Assembly (NCBI GenBank): GCA_000949895.1
Contig: JWIT01000003.1
Span: 248,001-312,000, forward strand
Direction of reading: 5' to 3'
Length of the DNA stretch: 64,000 nucleotides
From: Agrobacterium arsenijevicii
GTDB lineage: Bacteria; Pseudomonadota; Alphaproteobacteria; Rhizobiales; Rhizobiaceae
Part shown: positions 21,133 through 32,730 of the stretch, one piece after another
Numbering within the stretch: the first letter of the stretch is position 1
How the letters are laid out: each line of letters starts with the position of its first letter
Translations under genes and position numbers: made by a program
The notes under the pieces: model-generated
What the model was told of the DNA's origin: nothing
The model's input: only the letters and a program-made list of their open reading frames with translations
The model's database searches: none

Positions 21133-23082
21133 ATGCGCACTTTGAATCTGGGCATCCTTGCCCACGTAGACGCAGGCAAGACTAGCCTTACGGAGCGTCT
21201 CCTATTTGACACCGGCGTAATCGACAGGCTGGGCAGCGTCGATACCGGCAATACACAGACAGACAGCCTCGAACTGGAACGGCAACGCGGCATTACGATC
21301 AGAGCCGCCGTCGTCTCCTTTACGATTGGCGATACCGTCGTCAATCTCATCGATACGCCCGGCCATCCCGATTTCATTGCGGAAGTCGAGCGGGTATTGG
21401 GTCTGCTTGACGCCGCGGTGGTTGTGGTTTCCGCCGTGGAAGGCGTGCAGGCGCAAACGCGGATACTGGTGCGGGCGTTGCAACGTCTCGCAGTCCCGTT
21501 CGTATTCTTCATCAACAAGGTCGATCGCCCCGGCGCGCGTTATGACGAGGTCGTGCAGAACCTCGCCGATCAGTTGAGGGTGCGCCCGATCGCCATGTCG
21601 ACTGTCACCCGCGCTGGCGGCAAGTCCGCGCGGGTGGAGGCACCGGATACGAGGAGCGAGCCATTTTTCTCCATCCTCTGCGAAATCCTTGCGGAGAATG
21701 ACGAAGACCTGTTGCACGACTATCTTCTGACGCCAGAGCGTGTGGAACCCGTAAGGCTCCAGCGATCGCTCGCGCATCAGACCGCCCAAGGGTTGGTGCA
21801 TCCGGCATTTGCCGGTGCGGCAATGACGGGAGCCGGCCTGCCGGCTCTGATATCCGCCATCGTCGACATGTTGCCTGGCCGTCACCCTGATCCAGAGGGG
21901 GAAGTGTCCGGTAAGATTTTCAAGATCGAGCGCGGATGGGGCGGAGAAAAGCTGTCATATCTGCATCTGACATCCGGAACCGTCCAGGTCAGGCAATATC
22001 TGCCTTTGCCGCAGGGACCGGCAAGAGTGACCGGAATACAGTTGTTCGATGATGGTCATGTTCACAATTCGACGCATCTCCGCGCCGGTCAGATCGCCCG
22101 CGTCACCGGCCTTGCGAGTGCCCGGATCGGCGACAGGGTTGGCGCGGACGCGGTTGCCGACAGCCCGTTTCATTTCGCTCCACCCACGCTTGAAACGCGC
22201 GTCGTTTCCCGCCGTCCGGCTGAGCACGCGACGCTCTGGCTGGCGCTGAACCAGCTGACCGAGCAGGATCCGCTTATCGGATTGCGAAGGAACGACGAGA
22301 CGAACGAGGTTTTCGTATCGCTCTATGGAGAGGTGCAAAAGGAGATCATCCAATCGGAACTGTTGACGGGTTTTGGCATCGAGGCCGAATTTGAGGACAG
22401 CACGATTATCTGCGTGGAAAGGCTGGCAGGTATCGGGCACGGACTTCAAACCATCTTCAAGGCACCAAACCCCTTTATCGCCACTGTCGGATTGCGGGTC
22501 GAGCCAAGACCGGATGGTGTTGGCAACAGCTTCGCACTGGAGGTGGAGGTGGGCCAGATGCCCGCAAGCTTTTATCGAGCGGTCGAGGAGACCGTATTCG
22601 AAACGCTGAAGCAGGGCATATTCGGTTGGCGGGTGGTGGATTGCCATGTTGCCATGACGGCTGCCCGGCAGAGTGCACCTTCGAGCACGGCTGCCGATTT
22701 CCGGCAGCTAACACCATGGGTGCTGGCAATGGCGCTGAGCGAAGCGCAAACCTATGTTTGCGAGCCGATCGATCACTTCCATCTCGAAGCGCCGGCGGCA
22801 GCGATGACACGCCTGAGCACCATTCTCGCCAAAGCGGGTGCAGTCACCAGCAACGCCGTTATCTCCGGTGGCATGACAAGGCTTGAAGGGACGATAGCGT
22901 CGGCAATGGTTCAGGGTGTTCAGCAGCAGGTGCCGGGGCTGACGGGTGGCATGGGCGCGATGGAAACGTCGTTCAGCCACTATGCGCGGGCGGATAATCC
23001 GCCACCGCCGCGGCGCCGGTCGGGTGCTGATCCGTTCAATGAGCGCGATTATCTGCTGAACCTGCGCCGAAATGCAGAATGA
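21133..23082 (+). CDS. Tet(M)/OtrA-like ribosomal protection GTPase
   Basis: A 649-residue translational GTPase with the EF-G-like layout of tetracycline ribosomal protection proteins. The GTPase motifs are AHVDAGKTS (P-loop), RGITI (switch I Thr), DTPGH (switch II) and NKVD. The text SLELERQRGITI and ALQRLAVPFVFFINKVDRPGA are typical of the Tet(M)/Tet(O)/OtrA group rather than EF-G. These proteins free the ribosome from tetracycline. The C-terminal end (domain V, RARADNPPPPRRRSG and on) is longer and more basic than in Tet(M). A GAGGG site lies 6 nt upstream of the ATG. Nothing mobile surrounds it. It could be an intrinsic resistance factor or have another ribosomal role. Confidence 0.88.
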   Translation: MRTLNLGILAHVDAGKTSLTERLLFDTGVIDRLGSVDTGNTQTDSLELERQRGITIRAAVVSFTIGDTVVNLIDTPGHPDFIAEVERVLGLLDAAVVVVSAVEGVQAQTRILVRALQRLAVPFVFFINKVDRPGARYDEVVQNLADQLRVRPIAMSTVTRAGGKSARVEAPDTRSEPFFSILCEILAENDEDLLHDYLLTPERVEPVRLQRSLAHQTAQGLVHPAFAGAAMTGAGLPALISAIVDMLPGRHPDPEGEVSGKIFKIERGWGGEKLSYLHLTSGTVQVRQYLPLPQGPARVTGIQLFDDGHVHNSTHLRAGQIARVTGLASARIGDRVGADAVADSPFHFAPPTLETRVVSRRPAEHATLWLALNQLTEQDPLIGLRRNDETNEVFVSLYGEVQKEIIQSELLTGFGIEAEFEDSTIICVERLAGIGHGLQTIFKAPNPFIATVGLRVEPRPDGVGNSFALEVEVGQMPASFYRAVEETVFETLKQGIFGWRVVDCHVAMTAARQSAPSSTAADFRQLTPWVLAMALSEAQTYVCEPIDHFHLEAPAAAMTRLSTILAKAGAVTSNAVISGGMTRLEGTIASAMVQGVQQQVPGLTGGMGAMETSFSHYARADNPPPPRRRSGADPFNERDYLLNLRRNAE

Positions 23083-23175: not shown

Positions 23176-26100
23176 TCAGTTGAACCGGCCCGCGGCATGG
23201 GCAAGCATCGTATAGACCTTGCCGGTATCGGAGGTGAGGTAGGACTGGGTGACTGTCCGGTCGCGATCCGTGCGGGCCACATCGGCAAGCAGCTTTTCGA
23301 AATCGGTGATGTAGCGGTCCACGGCGGTGCGGAATTCAGCTTCCCGCTCGTATTTGCGCTTGATCTCGTCAAACGTCGTCTGGCCCTTCAGCGTGTAGAG
23401 GCGACGGGTAAAGACGTCGCGCTCGCCGCGCTGGTAACGGCGCCACAGTTCCACAGACGCATCGTGGTCGATGGCGCGGGCGATGTCGACGGAAAGCGAG
23501 TTCAGCGATTCCACCATATGCCGCGGATTGCGGGTGTCGGCCGCACGCGTCGGCTGCTGTTCAGTGCTTGCGCGGGGTGCGGAAGCGGCAGCCGTTTCCT
23601 GCGAGGCGCCACGCAGAAGATCGCTGATCCAGCCACCGCCTTCTTCACGACGTCCGGCGGGAGCGGCAGCGGGAGCCGGGGCAGGTGTCTGACGGTTCTC
23701 GACCTGGCGGTTTTCAAGCGGCAGGGCGCCACGCAAGGCAGGGGCAGCAGCAGGCTGCGGCTGTGCCGGGCGCTGCTGTACCGGAGCGGTGGCCGCCGGC
23801 TGCGGACGCGTCTCGACGCGGCGTTCAGCGGCAGGCTGGGTCGCGGCGATGGCACGGGCCACGGGTTCGGACACTTCCATCTGGTGGGTCGAACGACCGA
23901 CAAGCTGGGAAATATCCTGCAGGGCCTTGATCTGTTCGGAAACGGCGCGGCGCATGGCGGCAGCGCTTTCCTTGGCCTCTTCCGGCAGGTCGAACGCGCC
24001 GCGCTTCAGTTCTGCGCGGGTCGCATCCAGCTCGCGGCGGATGTCGTGGCTGGAGCGGCGGATCTCGTCCGTCGCGCCGGCGAAACGGCTAACGGCTTCC
24101 TCGACGGCCTGACGCAGCGTTTCCTTGAGGTTGGCGGCGGCGGCATTCGATTTTTCCGAGGCGCTGCCCAAGAGATTGTCGACTTCCGAAAGCGAGGATT
24201 CGACACCGCCGCGCAGGCGGTTGACCAGCTCGTCGGAATATTTCTGCGCGTCGGACAGCGTGCTTTCGATCGAGCGGCTGGCATCCTGACCGGCGGAGAG
24301 CAGGGCGCCCCGCATGGTCTGTGCCGCCGTGCGGGCGCGCTGTTCGGTCTCGTCGAGCGAGCGGCCGATATCGGTGAAGGATGCCTGCAGGTTGTCGCGC
24401 AGATTGCCGGCAACGTTCTGCGAACGCTCCTCGGCTTCGTTGAGCGTGGTTTCCACGACGCTGACGACGCCGCGCATGGCGGTCTCGATTTCTTCGGAAC
24501 GCTTGACGAGGCCGACGGACAGGCTGCGCAGCGCATCCTGACGTTCCTCCAGCGTGCCGACGAGGCTCGACTGCGCCGCATTGAGCAGCTCGGAGGCCTG
24601 GCTCAGCACCTTGGAATGTTCCTCGAAGCGTCCAACGATGCCGGCAACCTGTGCCAGTGTTTGGCCGGAAATATTCGACAGACGGTCGATCTTTCCTTCG
24701 AGCAGGCGGCTGGAGCTGGACACCATGTCGGCGGCCTGCGAAGCGGATTCGGAGAAGCGGGTGGCCGACGCGTTCAACGCTTCGTCTGCCGTGCCGAATT
24801 CCTGCGCGGCACGCTCGACGGCGGTGTTGAAGTTGGTGGCCGACTGCTCGACGATCTCGGCCATGCTGTTATGGGTTTGCGACAGCATATCCGTGCTCTG
24901 GCGGGTGGCGGCGACGAGCTTGTTCGCCACATCGCTGCCCGCGCGGGCGTATTTGTCGATACCCTGTTCAACAGCATCCGCCATGGCGGTATGGGTCTGG
25001 GACAGCAAGTCCGTGCTCTGGCGGGTTGCCGCGACAAGCTTGCTCGCCGCATCCGTTCCGGCAGTGGCATAGTCGCTGATCGCCTGTTCCACCATGCCGA
25101 CCATGCCGCTGTTGCTCTGCGACAGAAGCTCGGCGCTCTGCTGAGCGGCGGAAACGATCTTTTCGGCGGCTTCGCGACCGATGGTGGCGTATTCGTCGAC
25201 CACCGGCTTCGCTTTTTCTTCGATGAGGCGCGACAGTTCGGCGGAACGGCTGGCCAGCATCGAGTTGAGTTCGCGGGTGCGGTTGTCCAGCGCCGAGCGG
25301 ATGGATTCGCCACGCGCATCGAGGGCGGATTCGACACCGGACAGGGTCTCTGAAATGACGCCGACCTGCGAACGCACGACGGCTTCAGCTTCCGCAACCT
25401 TGTTGACGATGATGTTGCCAGCTTCCGAGAAGGTCTGGGCGACGGCAGCCGCCTGACCGGAAAGACGTGTCTGCGCATCCGAGATGCGGTTGACGATCTC
25501 GCCGGAGCGTTCCTCGATGGCCTTGGTGAATGCTTCGTTCTTTGCCTGCACCTGTTCGGCGAATTCCGAGCCGGTCTTCGCGAGCAGGGCCGAGGAGCGA
25601 GCTGCTTCTTCGTCGATGCTCTGGGTGGCGGAGATGACCGCGCCGCGCAGGCCGACGGCGAGATCGCTCGCTTTGCCTTCGATGGTGCGGTTGACGTTTT
25701 CAAGTCCGATCGTCAGCGCCCGGTCCATGGTGCCGAGACGTTCGTCGATGCGGGCCGAGCCGGCATCGAAGGTTTCCGCCAGACGGGTGGTGCGGCTTTC
25801 GAATGTATCGGTGACGCGTATTGCCTGCTCGTCCAGAATGCCGGTGATGCGCTGAGCGGCATCATCGCTGGTGCGGGCAAAAGCGGCTGTCTTGTCTTCC
25901 AGAGCGTCGGCAAAGCGGCGGCCTGCATCCTCGATCGAGGTGTTGACGTTGCCGAGATCGCTCGAAACGCGCTCCTGCAGCGTGCCGAGCGATGTCTCGA
26001 TGCGCGCGCCGGTCTCGTCGAGCCTGCCTGTGACGCTTCCGATCGAGGTTTCGATCCGCGAGGAGAGCGCATCGGTCGCGCCGCCGATTTCACGGGCGGC

Positions 26101-29100
26101 TTCACCGATCTTGACGGCGATATCGCCAGCGCTGTTGCGAAGACGTTCTTCCAGCGTCGCCGCACTGCCGTCAATCGCCTTCTGCAGCGTTTCCTGCTGG
26201 GTCTCAAGCGAGAGCTCGAGCATGCTGGCGCTGGATGCGACCGTGGTGCCGATCATCATCGCCTGTTCGGAAAGCATGTCGCCCATCTGGGTCGTCGCCG
26301 AGCTCAGGGTCGCCGCCATGTCCGCGTGGCGCTGGTCGAGCGCGGTGCGGATATCCTCATGCGATTGCGAGAGGTTGGTTTCGAGACGGGAGACGCCTTC
26401 TTCCACCGTCTGCGCAAAACGGCTGCTGCCGTCCTCCACAACACTTTCGATGCGGTTGGCTGCACCCGCGACGCTCTGTTCGATCAGGCCGCTATTACGC
26501 TCAAGCGAGCCGGCGATGCGTTCAGCCTGCGAGCCGAGCATGGTCTCAAGCCGCTCGTGGCCGCTGGCAAGGGCGTTTTCAAGCGTGAAGGCGGTCGATT
26601 CCAGTCGCTGGCCGACGCCGGCCGCGGCCAGCGAAAGCGATGCGGTTCTGGCGTCCATAGCCTCGGCGATCCGTTCCTCAACGCCCGAAATCGTCATGTC
26701 GAGCGCCATGGTGCGGCTGTCGAGCGCATCGGCGATGCGTTCTTCCGCGCCGGAGACAATGCCGGAAAGGGCAGCGGTGCGGCTGTCCAGAGCGCCGGCA
26801 ATACGATCTTCGACCCCGGAAACCGCGGTATGAAGTGCTGCGGTGCGGCCGTCGAGAATGTCGGCAATCTTTTCCTCGACACCGGAGAAGCTCATGTCGA
26901 GCGCCATGGTGCGGCTGTCGAGCACATCCGTGATCCGCTCCTCCGCACCGGAAACGACGTTCTTCAGCGAATCCGTGCGGCTGTCGAGTGCTCCGGCAAT
27001 ACGGGTTTCGGCACCGGCCACCAATTCGCCAAGGGCGGCGGTTCGGGTGTCGAGCGCTTCGGTGATTTTTTCCTCGGCGCCGGAAAACGCCATGTCGAGC
27101 GCCATGGTGCGGCTGTCCAAGGCGTCGGCGATGCGTTCTTCCGCACCCGAAACGACGGCATTGAGTGCAGCGGTGCGGCCATCCAGCGTTTCGGCAATAC
27201 GCGTTTCGGCACCGGCGACGACGTCGCCAAAGGTTGCCGTGCGGCTGTCGAGCGCGCCGGCGATCTTCTCTTCAGCGCTTGCGACAATGCCGGTGAGGGC
27301 GGAGGTGCGGTTGTCGAGCGTTTCGGACAGTCTCTCCTCGACATTGGCGAATGTCATGTCGAGCGACAGGGTGCGGCTGTCCATCGTGTCGGCAATACGT
27401 TCTTCGACACCGGAAATCGCGCTGGAAAGAGCAGCCGTGCGGCCATCCAGCGTTTCGGCGATACGGGTTTCCGCGCCGGAAACAACGTCATGCAGGGCGG
27501 CCGTGCGGCTTTCCAGCGTGTCGGAAATGCGGTCTTCGATGCCGGAAACGGCGCCGGTGATGGCGGCGGCCCGGGTTTCGAGCGTTTCCGAGAGACGACG
27601 TTCGACATCGGCAACGACGCTGTTGATCGCAGCGGCACGTTCGTCAAGCATCGCGGCAAGACGTTCCGCCGTGCCGGAGACTGAGCCGGTAATCGCCAGC
27701 GAACGGCTGGCAAGTGCCTCGTCGAAACGGTCCTGGCTGGCCGAAAGCGCGCCGAACAGGGCATTGCTGCGTTCCGCCAGCACGCCGTCGATCTTTTCGT
27801 GCGAATTGGCGAAGGCATCGGTGATTTCAGCGGTACGCTGGCCGATCGCGTCACTGAACTCGCGGGTGCGGGTTTCAAGCGCGCTTTCGAGCATTTCCTG
27901 GCCGGTGCCCAGTGCGGTTGCGAGCGCAAGTGACTGATCGGTCATGGTGTTGCCAATGCGCTCAAGGCCGCTGGTCAACATGGTGTCGAGGGCTTCGGAG
28001 CCGCCGGCAACGGTTTCGTTGATCCGGGCAAGGCTTTCCATCAACTTGCTGTCGAGGCTGCCTGCACGCTGGTCGAAGGCGCTGGCGAAATCCGCCACAT
28101 GTTCGTCGAAGGCCGAATTGACCTGACCGACCGTCGCCTGCAGCCGTTCCTCGTAGAGACCCGAGCGAAGATCGAGATCCATGATCGCATCGTCGGCCGT
28201 GCTTTGCAGGCTCTGACGGAAGGAGAGGCCTTTTTCCTCAAGCGTCGTGGAGAGCTTGTCGAGCACGTTATCGAGCGAACCGCCGATGATTTGCTGGCCG
28301 CGATCGATATTGCGGTTGAGTTCGAGCGTGCGCGTAGACAGCGTCTCGTTGAGCTGGCGGGTGCGTTCCTCAAGTGCGCTGTTGAGGCTTTCCGCGCCGC
28401 TGTCCAGCGTCGAGGCGTGGATCGCGAACCGCTCGAGCAGCACTTCGCCGCGTTCGTCCAGCGTCGAGGTGAGGTTGTGCAGGCGCATGTCGAATTCGCT
28501 GGAGAGCGTCGCGCCCGAGGAATTCAGTGCCTGAAGCAGGTTTTCGGTCTTGGCGGCGATCAGGCTGCCCATCGCTTCGGTCGAGGCGCGCGATTTTTCA
28601 AGCAGCGCTGCCGAGCGTGTGTCGATCATCGAGGCGAAGGCCTCGCCGGTGGTGGAAAGCCGCATCGAAAGCTCTTCGCCGACGATGGAAAGCTCTTCCT
28701 TGATCTGTTCCTGCGCTCCGACGATGGAGGAGCGGATACGCTCTGCGTGGTTGACGATGGCGTCGCGCTCGGCGGTCAGTTCCTGCACGAGGCTGCGCAC
28801 GCGCAATTCATTGTCGGCATAGCTGCGCTCAAGCGCGTTGACTTCCGAATGGACGAGGGTTTCGAGTTCAGTCGCGCGGGCAATGGTGCGCTCGATGCCA
28901 TCGTTCATGGCCGAGACTTCGCGGCGCACGGCCTGACCAACGGACATGATCCGGTCGGACGCGACCGTTTCGGGTTCGGCAAGGCGAAGGGCGACTTCGG
29001 CCATCGAGCGGGCAGCGTTACGCAGATCGCGGGCGCGCGCCATCATGATTGCGAAGGCGAAAAACAGCATGACCGGAACGACGATGCCGACGACGATCGC

Positions 29101-29523
29101 CATCAGGCCGGGAATTGCGGCGACGTCGGCGACCGAGCCGATATTCCACAGCGCGTTGCCATAGATGAGGTGGGCGATGCCGAGACCGCCGAGCGCCCAG
29201 ATCACCGACATGATCGTCGCGTTTCTGAGCGCGCCGCCGATGGAGCCGCCTTCGAGTGATTTCAGGATCATGGCCGGGCTGCGCTTGGAGCCGTCATTGG
29301 CCGCTTCCAGATTGGGTGATTTGGGAGCCTGTTCGACAGGCGCTCGCGCAGCCTCGGGAGCAGGGGTCTGTCTGCTGGCTTCCTTCAATCTGGCCTCCGG
29401 CTGCTTTGGCGCTGCAGTTTTCCGCGTCTCCGGCTTGTCTTCGAAAGCACCGAGCTGCAAGGCGTCTTCCAACGCCTGAAATGCAGTCTCGTCGACAGAG
29501 TCGCTGATCTTGTTATTCGCCAT
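23176..29523 (-). CDS. gpr: Growth Pole Ring protein GPR (giant apolipoprotein-like coiled-coil membrane protein)
   Basis: A 2115-residue protein, which equals the recalled length of Agrobacterium GPR, a ring-forming protein at the growth pole needed for polar growth. A Pro/Ala-rich cytoplasmic N-terminus is followed by two membrane helices (about 103-121 and 137-161), then about 1700 residues of helical heptad/11-mer sequence. Residues 640-969 are fifteen exact-length 22-residue repeats (consensus AEERIADALDSRTAAL). A Pro/Gln-rich linker (about 1894-1964) leads to a conserved C-terminal domain (about 1998-2115, VELWRRYQRGERDVFTRRLY). Databases often call it kinesin-like because of the coiled coil; there is no motor domain. 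ATG 29523 is chosen from GAGG 9 nt upstream; the frame is open 78 codons further. Confidence 0.93.
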   Translation of the reverse strand: MANNKISDSVDETAFQALEDALQLGAFEDKPETRKTAAPKQPEARLKEASRQTPAPEAARAPVEQAPKSPNLEAANDGSKRSPAMILKSLEGGSIGGALRNATIMSVIWALGGLGIAHLIYGNALWNIGSVADVAAIPGLMAIVVGIVVPVMLFFAFAIMMARARDLRNAARSMAEVALRLAEPETVASDRIMSVGQAVRREVSAMNDGIERTIARATELETLVHSEVNALERSYADNELRVRSLVQELTAERDAIVNHAERIRSSIVGAQEQIKEELSIVGEELSMRLSTTGEAFASMIDTRSAALLEKSRASTEAMGSLIAAKTENLLQALNSSGATLSSEFDMRLHNLTSTLDERGEVLLERFAIHASTLDSGAESLNSALEERTRQLNETLSTRTLELNRNIDRGQQIIGGSLDNVLDKLSTTLEEKGLSFRQSLQSTADDAIMDLDLRSGLYEERLQATVGQVNSAFDEHVADFASAFDQRAGSLDSKLMESLARINETVAGGSEALDTMLTSGLERIGNTMTDQSLALATALGTGQEMLESALETRTREFSDAIGQRTAEITDAFANSHEKIDGVLAERSNALFGALSASQDRFDEALASRSLAITGSVSGTAERLAAMLDERAAAINSVVADVERRLSETLETRAAAITGAVSGIEDRISDTLESRTAALHDVVSGAETRIAETLDGRTAALSSAISGVEERIADTMDSRTLSLDMTFANVEERLSETLDNRTSALTGIVASAEEKIAGALDSRTATFGDVVAGAETRIAETLDGRTAALNAVVSGAEERIADALDSRTMALDMAFSGAEEKITEALDTRTAALGELVAGAETRIAGALDSRTDSLKNVVSGAEERITDVLDSRTMALDMSFSGVEEKIADILDGRTAALHTAVSGVEDRIAGALDSRTAALSGIVSGAEERIADALDSRTMALDMTISGVEERIAEAMDARTASLSLAAAGVGQRLESTAFTLENALASGHERLETMLGSQAERIAGSLERNSGLIEQSVAGAANRIESVVEDGSSRFAQTVEEGVSRLETNLSQSHEDIRTALDQRHADMAATLSSATTQMGDMLSEQAMMIGTTVASSASMLELSLETQQETLQKAIDGSAATLEERLRNSAGDIAVKIGEAAREIGGATDALSSRIETSIGSVTGRLDETGARIETSLGTLQERVSSDLGNVNTSIEDAGRRFADALEDKTAAFARTSDDAAQRITGILDEQAIRVTDTFESRTTRLAETFDAGSARIDERLGTMDRALTIGLENVNRTIEGKASDLAVGLRGAVISATQSIDEEAARSSALLAKTGSEFAEQVQAKNEAFTKAIEERSGEIVNRISDAQTRLSGQAAAVAQTFSEAGNIIVNKVAEAEAVVRSQVGVISETLSGVESALDARGESIRSALDNRTRELNSMLASRSAELSRLIEEKAKPVVDEYATIGREAAEKIVSAAQQSAELLSQSNSGMVGMVEQAISDYATAGTDAASKLVAATRQSTDLLSQTHTAMADAVEQGIDKYARAGSDVANKLVAATRQSTDMLSQTHNSMAEIVEQSATNFNTAVERAAQEFGTADEALNASATRFSESASQAADMVSSSSRLLEGKIDRLSNISGQTLAQVAGIVGRFEEHSKVLSQASELLNAAQSSLVGTLEERQDALRSLSVGLVKRSEEIETAMRGVVSVVETTLNEAEERSQNVAGNLRDNLQASFTDIGRSLDETEQRARTAAQTMRGALLSAGQDASRSIESTLSDAQKYSDELVNRLRGGVESSLSEVDNLLGSASEKSNAAAANLKETLRQAVEEAVSRFAGATDEIRRSSHDIRRELDATRAELKRGAFDLPEEAKESAAAMRRAVSEQIKALQDISQLVGRSTHQMEVSEPVARAIAATQPAAERRVETRPQPAATAPVQQRPAQPQPAAAPALRGALPLENRQVENRQTPAPAPAAAPAGRREEGGGWISDLLRGASQETAAASAPRASTEQQPTRAADTRNPRHMVESLNSLSVDIARAIDHDASVELWRRYQRGERDVFTRRLYTLKGQTTFDEIKRKYEREAEFRTAVDRYITDFEKLLADVARTDRDRTVTQSYLTSDTGKVYTMLAHAAGRFN
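26617..27606 (-). repeat. 15 tandem 66 bp units inside gpr (22-residue protein repeats)
   Basis: Reading the coding strand, fifteen consecutive 66 bp units each encode 22 residues with no insertion or deletion, from VERRLSETLETRAAAITGAVSG region to VEERIAEAMDARTASL region. The invariant core is LD-x-RT at positions 9-13. Units 4, 8, 11 and 14 share LSLDM/MALDM at positions 14-18, a higher-order period of three to four units that points to past block duplication. Twenty-two-residue amphipathic repeats are the unit of apolipoprotein-type helices. Confidence 0.95.
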
Positions 29524-31764: not shown

Positions 31765-31869
31765 GACCCGGCCTTCCGGTTGAACTTGAAAAACGTTTGC
31801 TGCATAGGCGGAGCGGAACTTATAAGAATTGGCATAACACTCCGTATATTCCCGAAAGGCGCGTGTTAC

Positions 31870-32730
31870 GTGATAACAGCCGGCAGCAATGTGTGGCAAG
31901 CGGCCCATGGTCGCTCCCTGAAACTTGATGGACGTGGCCGTATTATGGCCATCGTCAATGCGACGCCCGATTCCTTTTCGGATGGCGGCCGTTATCTCGC
32001 CGTGGATGCGGCTTTTTCCCATGCGCTGACCTGTGTGGAAGAGGGTGCCGATATCATCGATATCGGCGGCGAATCTACACGTCCCGGTGCGGCTGAGGTG
32101 ACGGCAGCTGAGGAACAGGACCGGGTGCTGCCGGTCATCGAAAGGCTGCGCCGCGAGACGGATGTTCTGATTTCCGTCGACACCTACCGCGCATCGACGG
32201 CAAGGCTGGCGATCGAGGCGGGCGCGCACATCGTCAATGACGTGTTCGGCCTGCAGAAAGACGGGGACATGGCGGGTGTGATCGCCGCCGCACGCGCTGG
32301 CGTCTGCATCATGCATACCGGCCGCGACCGGCAGAAGCTTGCCGATGTCATTGAAGACCAGTTCGAATTCCTCAACCGCTCGCTCGAGATCGCCGAGGAC
32401 GCAGGTATCGCCCGTGATGCCATTGTGCTTGATCCGGGCTTCGGTTTTGCCAAGGATGAGCGCGAAAATGTCGAGTTGATGGCACGCTTCGGCGAACTTG
32501 CCGCTTTCGGCCTGCCGGTTCTGGCCGGTACGTCGCGCAAGCGTTTCATCGGGTCGCTGACGGGCAGGGATGCGGCCCACGAACGCGATATCGGAACAGC
32601 GGCGACCACAGCGATCCTCAGGCTGGCGGGTGCCGCGATTTTTCGCGTGCACAATGTCGCCGCAACACGCGATACGCTGGCAATTGCCGATGCGGTTCTT
32701 GCCAAAGCATCGGCAAGGCCCGATGCATAG
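31870..32730 (+). CDS. folP: dihydropteroate synthase
   Basis: FolP joins para-aminobenzoate to the pterin diphosphate and is the target of sulfonamides. The 286 residues show the two family signatures: IMAIVNATPDSFSDGGRYL and IDIGGESTRPGA, then SVDTYR, HIVNDVFG, DPGFGFAK and LAGTSRKRFIG. The start is set at GTG 31870 (AAAGG about 10 nt upstream) because the upstream part of the frame, from 31780, is Cys/Ile-rich and unlike FolP. It heads a folP-folB-folK cluster: folB starts 78 bp after its stop. Confidence 0.93.
   Translation: MITAGSNVWQAAHGRSLKLDGRGRIMAIVNATPDSFSDGGRYLAVDAAFSHALTCVEEGADIIDIGGESTRPGAAEVTAAEEQDRVLPVIERLRRETDVLISVDTYRASTARLAIEAGAHIVNDVFGLQKDGDMAGVIAAARAGVCIMHTGRDRQKLADVIEDQFEFLNRSLEIAEDAGIARDAIVLDPGFGFAKDERENVELMARFGELAAFGLPVLAGTSRKRFIGSLTGRDAAHERDIGTAATTAILRLAGAAIFRVHNVAATRDTLAIADAVLAKASARPDA

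What the first reader, a model, noticed from the sequence alone, without database searches (positions are those of the whole stretch)
26617..27606. Fifteen perfect-length 22-residue repeats in the GPR ring protein with a higher-order block pattern
The units follow each other without a single insertion or deletion over 330 residues, while the rest of the 1700-residue coil is only loosely periodic. Units 4, 8, 11 and 14 share an LDM-containing variant, suggesting block duplication of three or four units and later homogenisation. A repeat count locked to 22 residues would set the length of a rod; strains may differ in number, which could set ring diameter or thickness at the growth pole.
Basis: partly seen in the sequence, partly recalled or inferred. 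Interest (0 to 1): 0.75.

Follow-up and report, generated by a model that had tools for sequence, protein, structure and literature searches.

The report
Growth-ring protein built in whole turns
A giant bacterial protein that organises growth at one cell end contains a long helical rod that gains and loses pieces mainly in whole turns of the helix, and the fifteen 22-residue repeats in this genome are one case of that rule, which points to an oily stripe along the rod that has to stay in line.

Summary
The repeats are real: fifteen 22-residue units without an indel, residues 640-969 of the 2,115-residue growth pole ring protein GPR/RgsE. Unit number is not constant: in 37 of 39 genomes of the genus the array holds 15 to 29 whole units, with at least 14 changes on a tree. 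Block duplication is supported; ongoing homogenisation is not, in this lineage.

The larger result lies outside the finding. Of 166 relatives, 138 carry a tandem array in the coil, with unit lengths of 11, 22, 29, 33, 36, 40, 44, 47, 51, 55, 58, 62 residues and more. These cluster at whole helical turns of about 3.65 residues, the period of the hydrophobic stripe. In 34 species pairs at 85% identity or more, all 34 coil gaps are 11, 22, 29, 33, 44, 66, 87, 110 or 132 residues; the ends of the same proteins have 92 gaps, 74 of them 1-3 residues.

Best explanation: the coil is a register-locked amphipathic helix of exchangeable whole-turn modules. Whether module number sets ring size is untested.

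The parts
23176..29523 (-). GPR/RgsE gene, 2,115 codons from the ATG at 29523 (the mechanical ORF runs upstream to 29757)
   Evidence: length equals the published GPR length of 2,115 aa (PMC8262873); C-terminal and N-terminal hydrophobic profile
29000..29220 (-). two hydrophobic stretches near residues 102-122 and 140-160, taken as the two N-terminal membrane segments (approximate bounds)
   Evidence: Kyte-Doolittle 21-residue windows; two N-terminal transmembrane domains stated for GPR-like proteins in PMC8262873
23986..28971 (-). coil, residues 185-1846, with one proline (1440)
   Evidence: proline positions; hydrophobic period 3.64-3.68
26617..27606 (-). array of fifteen 22-residue (66 bp) units, residues 640-969
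27607..27738 (-). two weaker units in register just before the array, residues 596-639
24870..25125 (-). second, short repeat of the coil: about two 40-residue copies (40 residues is 10.96 turns at 3.65)
23551..23985 (-). proline-rich C-terminal stretch, residues 1847-1991
   Evidence: proline list; a proline-rich region 1,890-2,000 is described for GPR in PMC8262873

Best explanation
The array is part of the helical coil of the growth pole ring protein GPR/RgsE. The coil is a very long, nearly proline-free amphipathic alpha-helix whose hydrophobic stripe repeats every 3.65 residues. It packs against partner helices (other parts of GPR or other growth-pole proteins) along that stripe, so the stripe has to stay on one face over its whole length. 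DNA duplications and deletions arise in the coil; those that are not close to a whole number of turns rotate everything downstream off the stripe and are lost, while 11, 22, 29, 33, 36, 40, 44 and so on are kept. Each lineage therefore shows its own tandem array with its own unit length. In Agrobacterium the unit is 22 residues (6 turns, about 3.3 nm) and 15-29 are present. Shown: the array, its variable number, the whole-turn unit lengths, the whole-turn gap lengths and the contrast with the protein's ends. Inferred: that selection on register is the cause, that the stripe packs against helices, and that the coil is an extended rod.
For: Unit lengths, one per array family: 60 families, circular concentration 0.934 with best period 3.66 and 0 of 5000 jittered sets as high; the 30 families not divisible by 11 give 0.976, 0 of 5000. 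At 3.65, the hydrophobic period, the score is 0.930 with 0 of 20000 nulls, against -0.246 at the heptad period 3.5; no unit length is a multiple of 7. Hydrophobic period: non-array coil of the window 3.64-3.66; 166 proteins median 3.65, 5-95% 3.62-3.66. Gaps: in 50 disjoint species pairs the coil has 87 gaps in about 65,600 columns, 59 multiples of 11 and two of 10 residues or fewer (both 4); the first 350 and last 400 residues of the same proteins have 191 gaps in about 37,500 columns, 75 of one residue and none a multiple of 11. At 85% identity or more, 34 pairs: 34 coil gaps, none under 11; 92 end gaps. Pattern-keeping shuffles never reach the identity that defines an array (max 0.292 of 166, threshold 0.45). 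A second set of 60 homologues gives 20 arrays, 11 distinct, 0.960, 0 of 3000. Some 22-residue units in L079 are at least 90% alike in protein with median codon identity 0.45, so their peptide is kept by selection rather than by recent copying (usage expectation about 0.50).
Against: At looser gap penalties (-8) 12 of 117 coil gaps are 10 residues or fewer, and the phase score falls from 0.766 to 0.686. Pairs below 85% identity show a few lengths that fit poorly (32, 43, 48, 68, 292), perhaps alignment errors. The 36-residue lineage fits 3.60 better than 3.65. The 60 families are over-split (near-identical 11-residue arrays of L119, L120, L125, L133 and L135 fall in four families). The 166-protein hydrophobic period includes the arrays themselves. 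The structure model is weak (pLDDT 70.6, pTM 0.23, with a break at 167-179) and Foldseek finds no PDB match, so packing is not shown. Other species have recent unit copies (median codon identity of like units 0.57-0.81 in L066, L069, L080, L147, L151 and the window).
Confidence: 0.72

Rival explanations
1. Lipid-surface helix: the coil is an apolipoprotein- or perilipin-like amphipathic helix that lies on the membrane. The 11/3 stripe faces lipid, and register matters because the lipid face must stay continuous.
For: The whole ORF matches Pfam Apolipoprotein at E 1.4e-50, 172.1 bits against a cut-off of 90. Shuffles that keep only the hydrophobic pattern do not match (0 of 3; random 0 of 2). 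Authors of PMC8262873 propose a lipid role. An 11/3 period is recalled for perilipins and alpha-synuclein, so the register rule does not separate this from helix packing.
Against: All 138 arrays sampled are net negative, median -7.8 per 100 residues, which is unfavourable on an anionic bacterial membrane (recalled principle). The array itself scores 70 bits, below the cut-off. The hydrophobic face of the unit is narrow, about four of eleven wheel positions (column list).
Confidence: 0.25
2. Ruler: the number of units sets the length of a rod and through it the diameter or thickness of the polar ring, and is selected for that.
For: Units are in strict register, so each adds about 3.3 nm of helix (recalled rise 0.15 nm per residue): 15 units 49.5 nm, 29 units 95.7 nm. 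The rest of the protein keeps its length within one clade (non-array 1780-1796 residues in the 23 clade-1 proteins) while unit number changes.
Against: ORF length runs from 1529 to 3392 residues in the family, with no sign of a conserved total. Authors state that GPR must fold, because foci are 50 nm while an extended coil would be 600 nm. No ring size is known to me outside C58.
Confidence: 0.2
3. Pure mutation: the lengths reflect how the DNA duplicates, and selection plays no part.
For: Repeats do expand and shrink by whole units once formed, which explains multiples of 22 within the genus.
Against: It does not explain why different lineages start units at 22, 29, 33, 36, 40, 47, 51 but never at 21, 28, 35 or 42, nor why the coil lacks the 1-3 residue gaps common in the ends of the same proteins, nor peptides kept alike over diverged codons (L079).
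Confidence: 0.04
4. Alignment or lag-scan artefact: an amphipathic pattern draws gaps and best lags to in-phase values.
For: Pattern-keeping shuffles do favour in-phase lags (94 of 166 best lags are multiples of 11).
Against: Those shuffles peak at 0.292 identity and none reaches 0.45. In pairs at 85% identity or more the gap length is fixed by the flanking identity, and there the rule is cleanest.
Confidence: 0.03

Closest known systems
GPR of Agrobacterium tumefaciens C58 (PMC8262873) and RgsE of Sinorhizobium meliloti (PMC7327166)
   Same: Same protein: 2,115 aa, two N-terminal membrane segments, long coil matching Pfam Apolipoprotein, proline-rich C-terminus. Krol et al. call RgsE 'large and repeat-containing' and allow +/-50% in length.
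   Different: The sections and passages I saw give no unit length, unit count or register rule; the words repeat, 22-mer and heptad do not occur in the main text of PMC8262873. The deletions discussed there, residues 232-494 and 1,036-1,381, do not cover the array at 640-969.
Apolipoprotein A1/A4/E (PF01442)
   Same: 11/22-residue amphipathic helix; the whole protein passes the Pfam cut-off.
   Different: No proline between units of this array, acidic, and the array alone is below the cut-off.
Perilipin 4 giant amphipathic helix (PMC5889406, seen only as a search listing)
   Same: Exceptionally long and repetitive amphipathic helix; 33-residue repeats of an 11/3 pattern (recalled).
   Different: Eukaryotic lipid-droplet coat; one unit length, not a spread of whole-turn lengths across lineages (recalled).
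Hendecad coiled coils (11 residues in 3 turns)
   Same: The period of 3.65 lies close to 11/3 = 3.667 and far from the heptad 3.5.
   Different: Helix packing is not shown here. A survey of hendecad families by Martinez-Goikoetxea and Lupas is recalled, was not seen, and may include this family.
ZorA of Zorya defence (NF033914; PMC11890865, one passage seen)
   Same: Inner-membrane protein with an elongated helical cytoplasmic tail; weak profile match E 1.7e-13.
   Different: 49.7 bits against a cut-off of 190; not a member.

Membership tests
GPR/RgsE growth pole ring protein | full-length homology including N-terminal membrane region | tested here: met
   N-terminal 273 residues found in 39 of 39 genomes of the genus and 197 of 199 family genomes; length 2,115 from the ATG. 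No record labelled C58 was aligned; L145 (contig of 2,841,580 bases, which I recall as the C58 circular chromosome length) also gives 2,115.
GPR/RgsE growth pole ring protein | polar ring localisation and need for polar growth | not testable with these tools
   published for C58 and S. meliloti
Apolipoprotein PF01442 | whole-protein score above the curated cut-off | tested here: met
   172.1 bits, cut-off 90
Apolipoprotein PF01442 | the 22-residue array alone passes the cut-off | tested here: not met
   70 bits, cut-off 90
Apolipoprotein PF01442 | lipid binding | not testable with these tools
   no assay
Hendecad helical rod | hydrophobic period near 11/3 | tested here: met
   3.66-3.68 in the array, 3.64-3.66 in the rest of the coil
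Hendecad helical rod | helices packed in a coiled coil | tested here: inconclusive
   AlphaFold2 gives helix over residues 2-166 and 180-415 of 418, but pTM 0.23; no PDB match
ZorA | score above NCBIfam cut-off | tested here: not met
   49.7 of 190 bits

The most novel reading that the evidence does not exclude
GPR is a register-locked molecular rod assembled from whole-turn modules that each lineage invents anew; its axial length evolves by gain and loss of modules and sets the size of the growth-pole ring, so ring size differs predictably between species (about 3.3 nm per 22-residue unit).
Probability: 0.2. Interest if true: 0.85.

Novelty: new variant of a known kind. Interest (0 to 1): 0.62.

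Why it matters
GPR organises polar growth, and its architecture is an open question: how a coil that would be 600 nm long fits into 50 nm foci (PMC8262873). The indel spectrum says what evolution will not tolerate there: loss of helical register. That gives a cheap, decisive prediction (deletions of 22, 29 or 33 residues tolerated, 20 or 24 not). It may also bear on a published surprise, that a deletion described as 20 residues was the most harmful of those tested in one assay: 20 residues is 5.48 turns, so everything downstream would turn by about 173 degrees. The paper also gives 21 residues and the bounds 413-433 and 413-434, so this is a suggestion only; the second 20-residue deletion was much milder in complementation, which does not follow from register alone. 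The same within-protein contrast could be used to find other register-locked rods.

Tried and rejected
Heptad coil: rejected, phase score -0.246 at 3.5 and no unit length a multiple of 7. Homogenisation by ongoing gene conversion: not supported in the 15-unit species; recent copies do exist in other species. PF01442 as an effect of the hydrophobic pattern alone: rejected, shuffles that keep the pattern do not match. Published larger deletions read as in or out of register: left aside, because over 263 or 346 residues an error of 0.01 in the period moves the angle by 70 degrees or more. Strain-level counts: a protein search returned 60 distant homologues of 1185-1952 residues and no close relatives, so it could not answer. 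Solved structures by sequence: none. A first version of the event count used the longest open frame in each locus; two loci (L160, L195) were read in a wrong frame and it was replaced. The bounds 3.60-3.67 in the small hypergeometric test were chosen after seeing the lengths, so its P of 2.7e-9 is only illustrative.

Rows dropped: 8 of 174 proteins under 1500 residues (L081, L086, L098, L099, L131, L155, L168, L230); in the genus count L081 (cut by the contig end) and L082 (different repeat). The named loci are the best 80 of 151 hits (capped), and 80 places of the family search (197 of 199 genomes) plus 14 genus members were fetched, chosen by me, mostly one per genus.

Full report
OBSERVATION. 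The window carries one long minus-strand gene, 23176-29523 from its ATG, 2,115 codons, the length published for GPR (PMC8262873; I read its results section in full, plus outline and passages). The claimed stretch reads as fifteen 22-residue units with no indel; units are 53% alike on average and are not matched elsewhere in the protein. The spacing pattern is weakly significant for blocks of four units (p 0.027) and borderline for three (p 0.085).

VARIATION WITHIN THE GENUS. All 39 genomes of the genus have the protein's N-terminal part. In 37 the array could be counted, each a whole number of 22-residue units starting at residue 639-652: 15 units in 18, 18 in 3, 22 in 2, 23 in 3, 24 in 4, 27 in 3, and 25, 26, 28, 29 once each. 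Species names, where known, are Agrobacterium and strains filed as Rhizobium. The two left out are L081, cut by the contig end, and L082 (Agrobacterium sp. AGB01), which shows a 33/66-residue period at the same place and another 33-residue repeat near 1297. A quick maximum-likelihood tree of the non-array parts needs at least 14 changes of unit number; 18 units arose on two branches inside the 15-unit group, with adjacent three-unit copies 92% and 84% alike in DNA. The variation does not come only from draft assemblies: genomes of 2-6 contigs hold 18, 18, 23, 27, 28 and 23 units.

HOMOGENISATION. In the 18 species with 15 units, same-position units are 95.5% identical between species and different units within a species 52%, so the units have long evolved as separate positions. 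In the other clade the best partner of a middle unit is slightly closer within its own array (0.901) than in another species (0.865). L079 has 22 unit pairs at least 90% alike in protein with median codon identity 0.45, at or below what codon usage alone gives (about 0.50 as a median over arrays): the peptide is conserved though the DNA has diverged. L066, L069, L080 and the window have like units with 0.74-0.81 codon identity, that is, more recent copies; L147 and L151 lie between (0.57, 0.62).

OTHER GENERA. I fetched 80 named loci, 80 further places from the family search and genus members and kept 166 proteins of at least 1500 residues. In 138 of them some lag gives at least 45% identity over 120 residues; the best of one shuffle per protein is 0.242, and of a shuffle that keeps the hydrophobic pattern 0.292. 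Grouped by unit sequence they form 60 families, an over-split figure. Unit lengths are 11 (7), 22 (8), 29 (15), 33 (3), 36, 40 (3), 44 (6), 47 (2), 51, 55 (2), 58, 62 (3), 66 (2), 69, 73, 80, 88, 110, 139. They cluster at whole turns of 3.64-3.66 residues far beyond jittered sets (0 of 5000 and 0 of 20000), also without the multiples of 11 and without the weak 11-residue families. Sixty other homologues, of which the few with names are from Liberibacter, Hyphomicrobiaceae, Xanthobacter and others, give 20 arrays with units 11, 22, 33, 40, 51 and 81, 11 of them distinct, with the same clustering; most of these are multiples of 11.

PERIOD. The hydrophobic stripe of the window's coil repeats every 3.66-3.68 residues in the array and 3.64-3.66 outside it; over 166 proteins the median is 3.65. 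The lengths of units and the stripe thus agree, and both lie away from the heptad.

GAPS. In 50 disjoint species pairs the coil has 87 gaps in about 65,600 columns: two of 4 residues, none of 1-3, 59 multiples of 11. The first 350 and last 400 residues of the same proteins have 191 gaps in about 37,500 columns, 75 of one residue and none a multiple of 11. Results depend a little on gap cost: with open -11, 96 coil gaps, three of 10 or fewer; with -8, 117 coil gaps, 12 of 10 or fewer, 65 multiples of 11. In the 34 pairs at 85% identity or more, where gap length is least ambiguous, the 34 coil gaps are 11 (9), 22 (11), 29, 33 (2), 44 (4), 66 (4), 87, 110 and 132, against 92 end gaps of 1-13 residues. 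This contrast within one protein is the strongest evidence for a register constraint.

MECHANISM. Shown: arrays, whole-turn units and gaps, a matching stripe, and protein-level conservation. Inferred: selection removes indels that rotate the stripe; the stripe packs against helices; the coil is extended at least locally. A lipid-facing helix remains a serious rival, because it would need the same register; the acidity of all 138 arrays and the narrow hydrophobic face (columns) argue against it. AlphaFold2 predicts helix for nearly the whole array but without useful confidence in its arrangement, and Foldseek finds nothing.

LITERATURE. Searches and the papers named here show no report of unit lengths, unit numbers or a register rule for GPR/RgsE. 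The 2019 PNAS paper on GPR is not held and a recalled survey of hendecad families was not seen, so I cannot say that nobody has described it. Krol et al. note that RgsE is repeat-containing and variable in length (passages).

VERDICT. The finding is real and, in its own terms, a known sort of repeat in a known protein. The rule that the coil changes length by whole turns, across lineages with different units, is the part worth following.

Noticed in passing
window 21133-23082 (+): 649-aa translation GTPase of the tetracycline ribosomal-protection type, best match Otr(A) model, below every curated cut-off shown (648.6 of 900; 640.3 of 775); it is convergent with GPR. Resistance is not implied.
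   Followed up: partly
window 31780-32730 (+): Dihydropteroate synthase, 307.8 bits against a cut-off of 162.6.
   Followed up: partly
window 26326-27684 and 26843-27937 (+): Long open frames (452 and 364 aa) opposite the array, probably a by-product of a 66 bp period divisible by 3.
   Followed up: no
window 24870-25125 (-): Second repeat in the same coil, 40 residues, also a whole number of turns (10.96).
   Followed up: partly
L098 and L099: The frame that holds the GPR N-terminus (1027 and 1321 aa) is shorter than another long frame of the locus (1366 and 1641 aa), so the gene may be split by a frameshift or an assembly error. Not examined.
   Followed up: no
window 23176-29523 (-): Weak match of the coil to ZorA of Zorya defence (E 1.7e-13, 49.7 of 190 bits), maybe shared helical composition.
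   Followed up: partly
The genome search family set, G056 and G197: Two of 199 family genomes gave no match to the GPR N-terminus; both are in hundreds of contigs, so absence is not shown.
   Followed up: no
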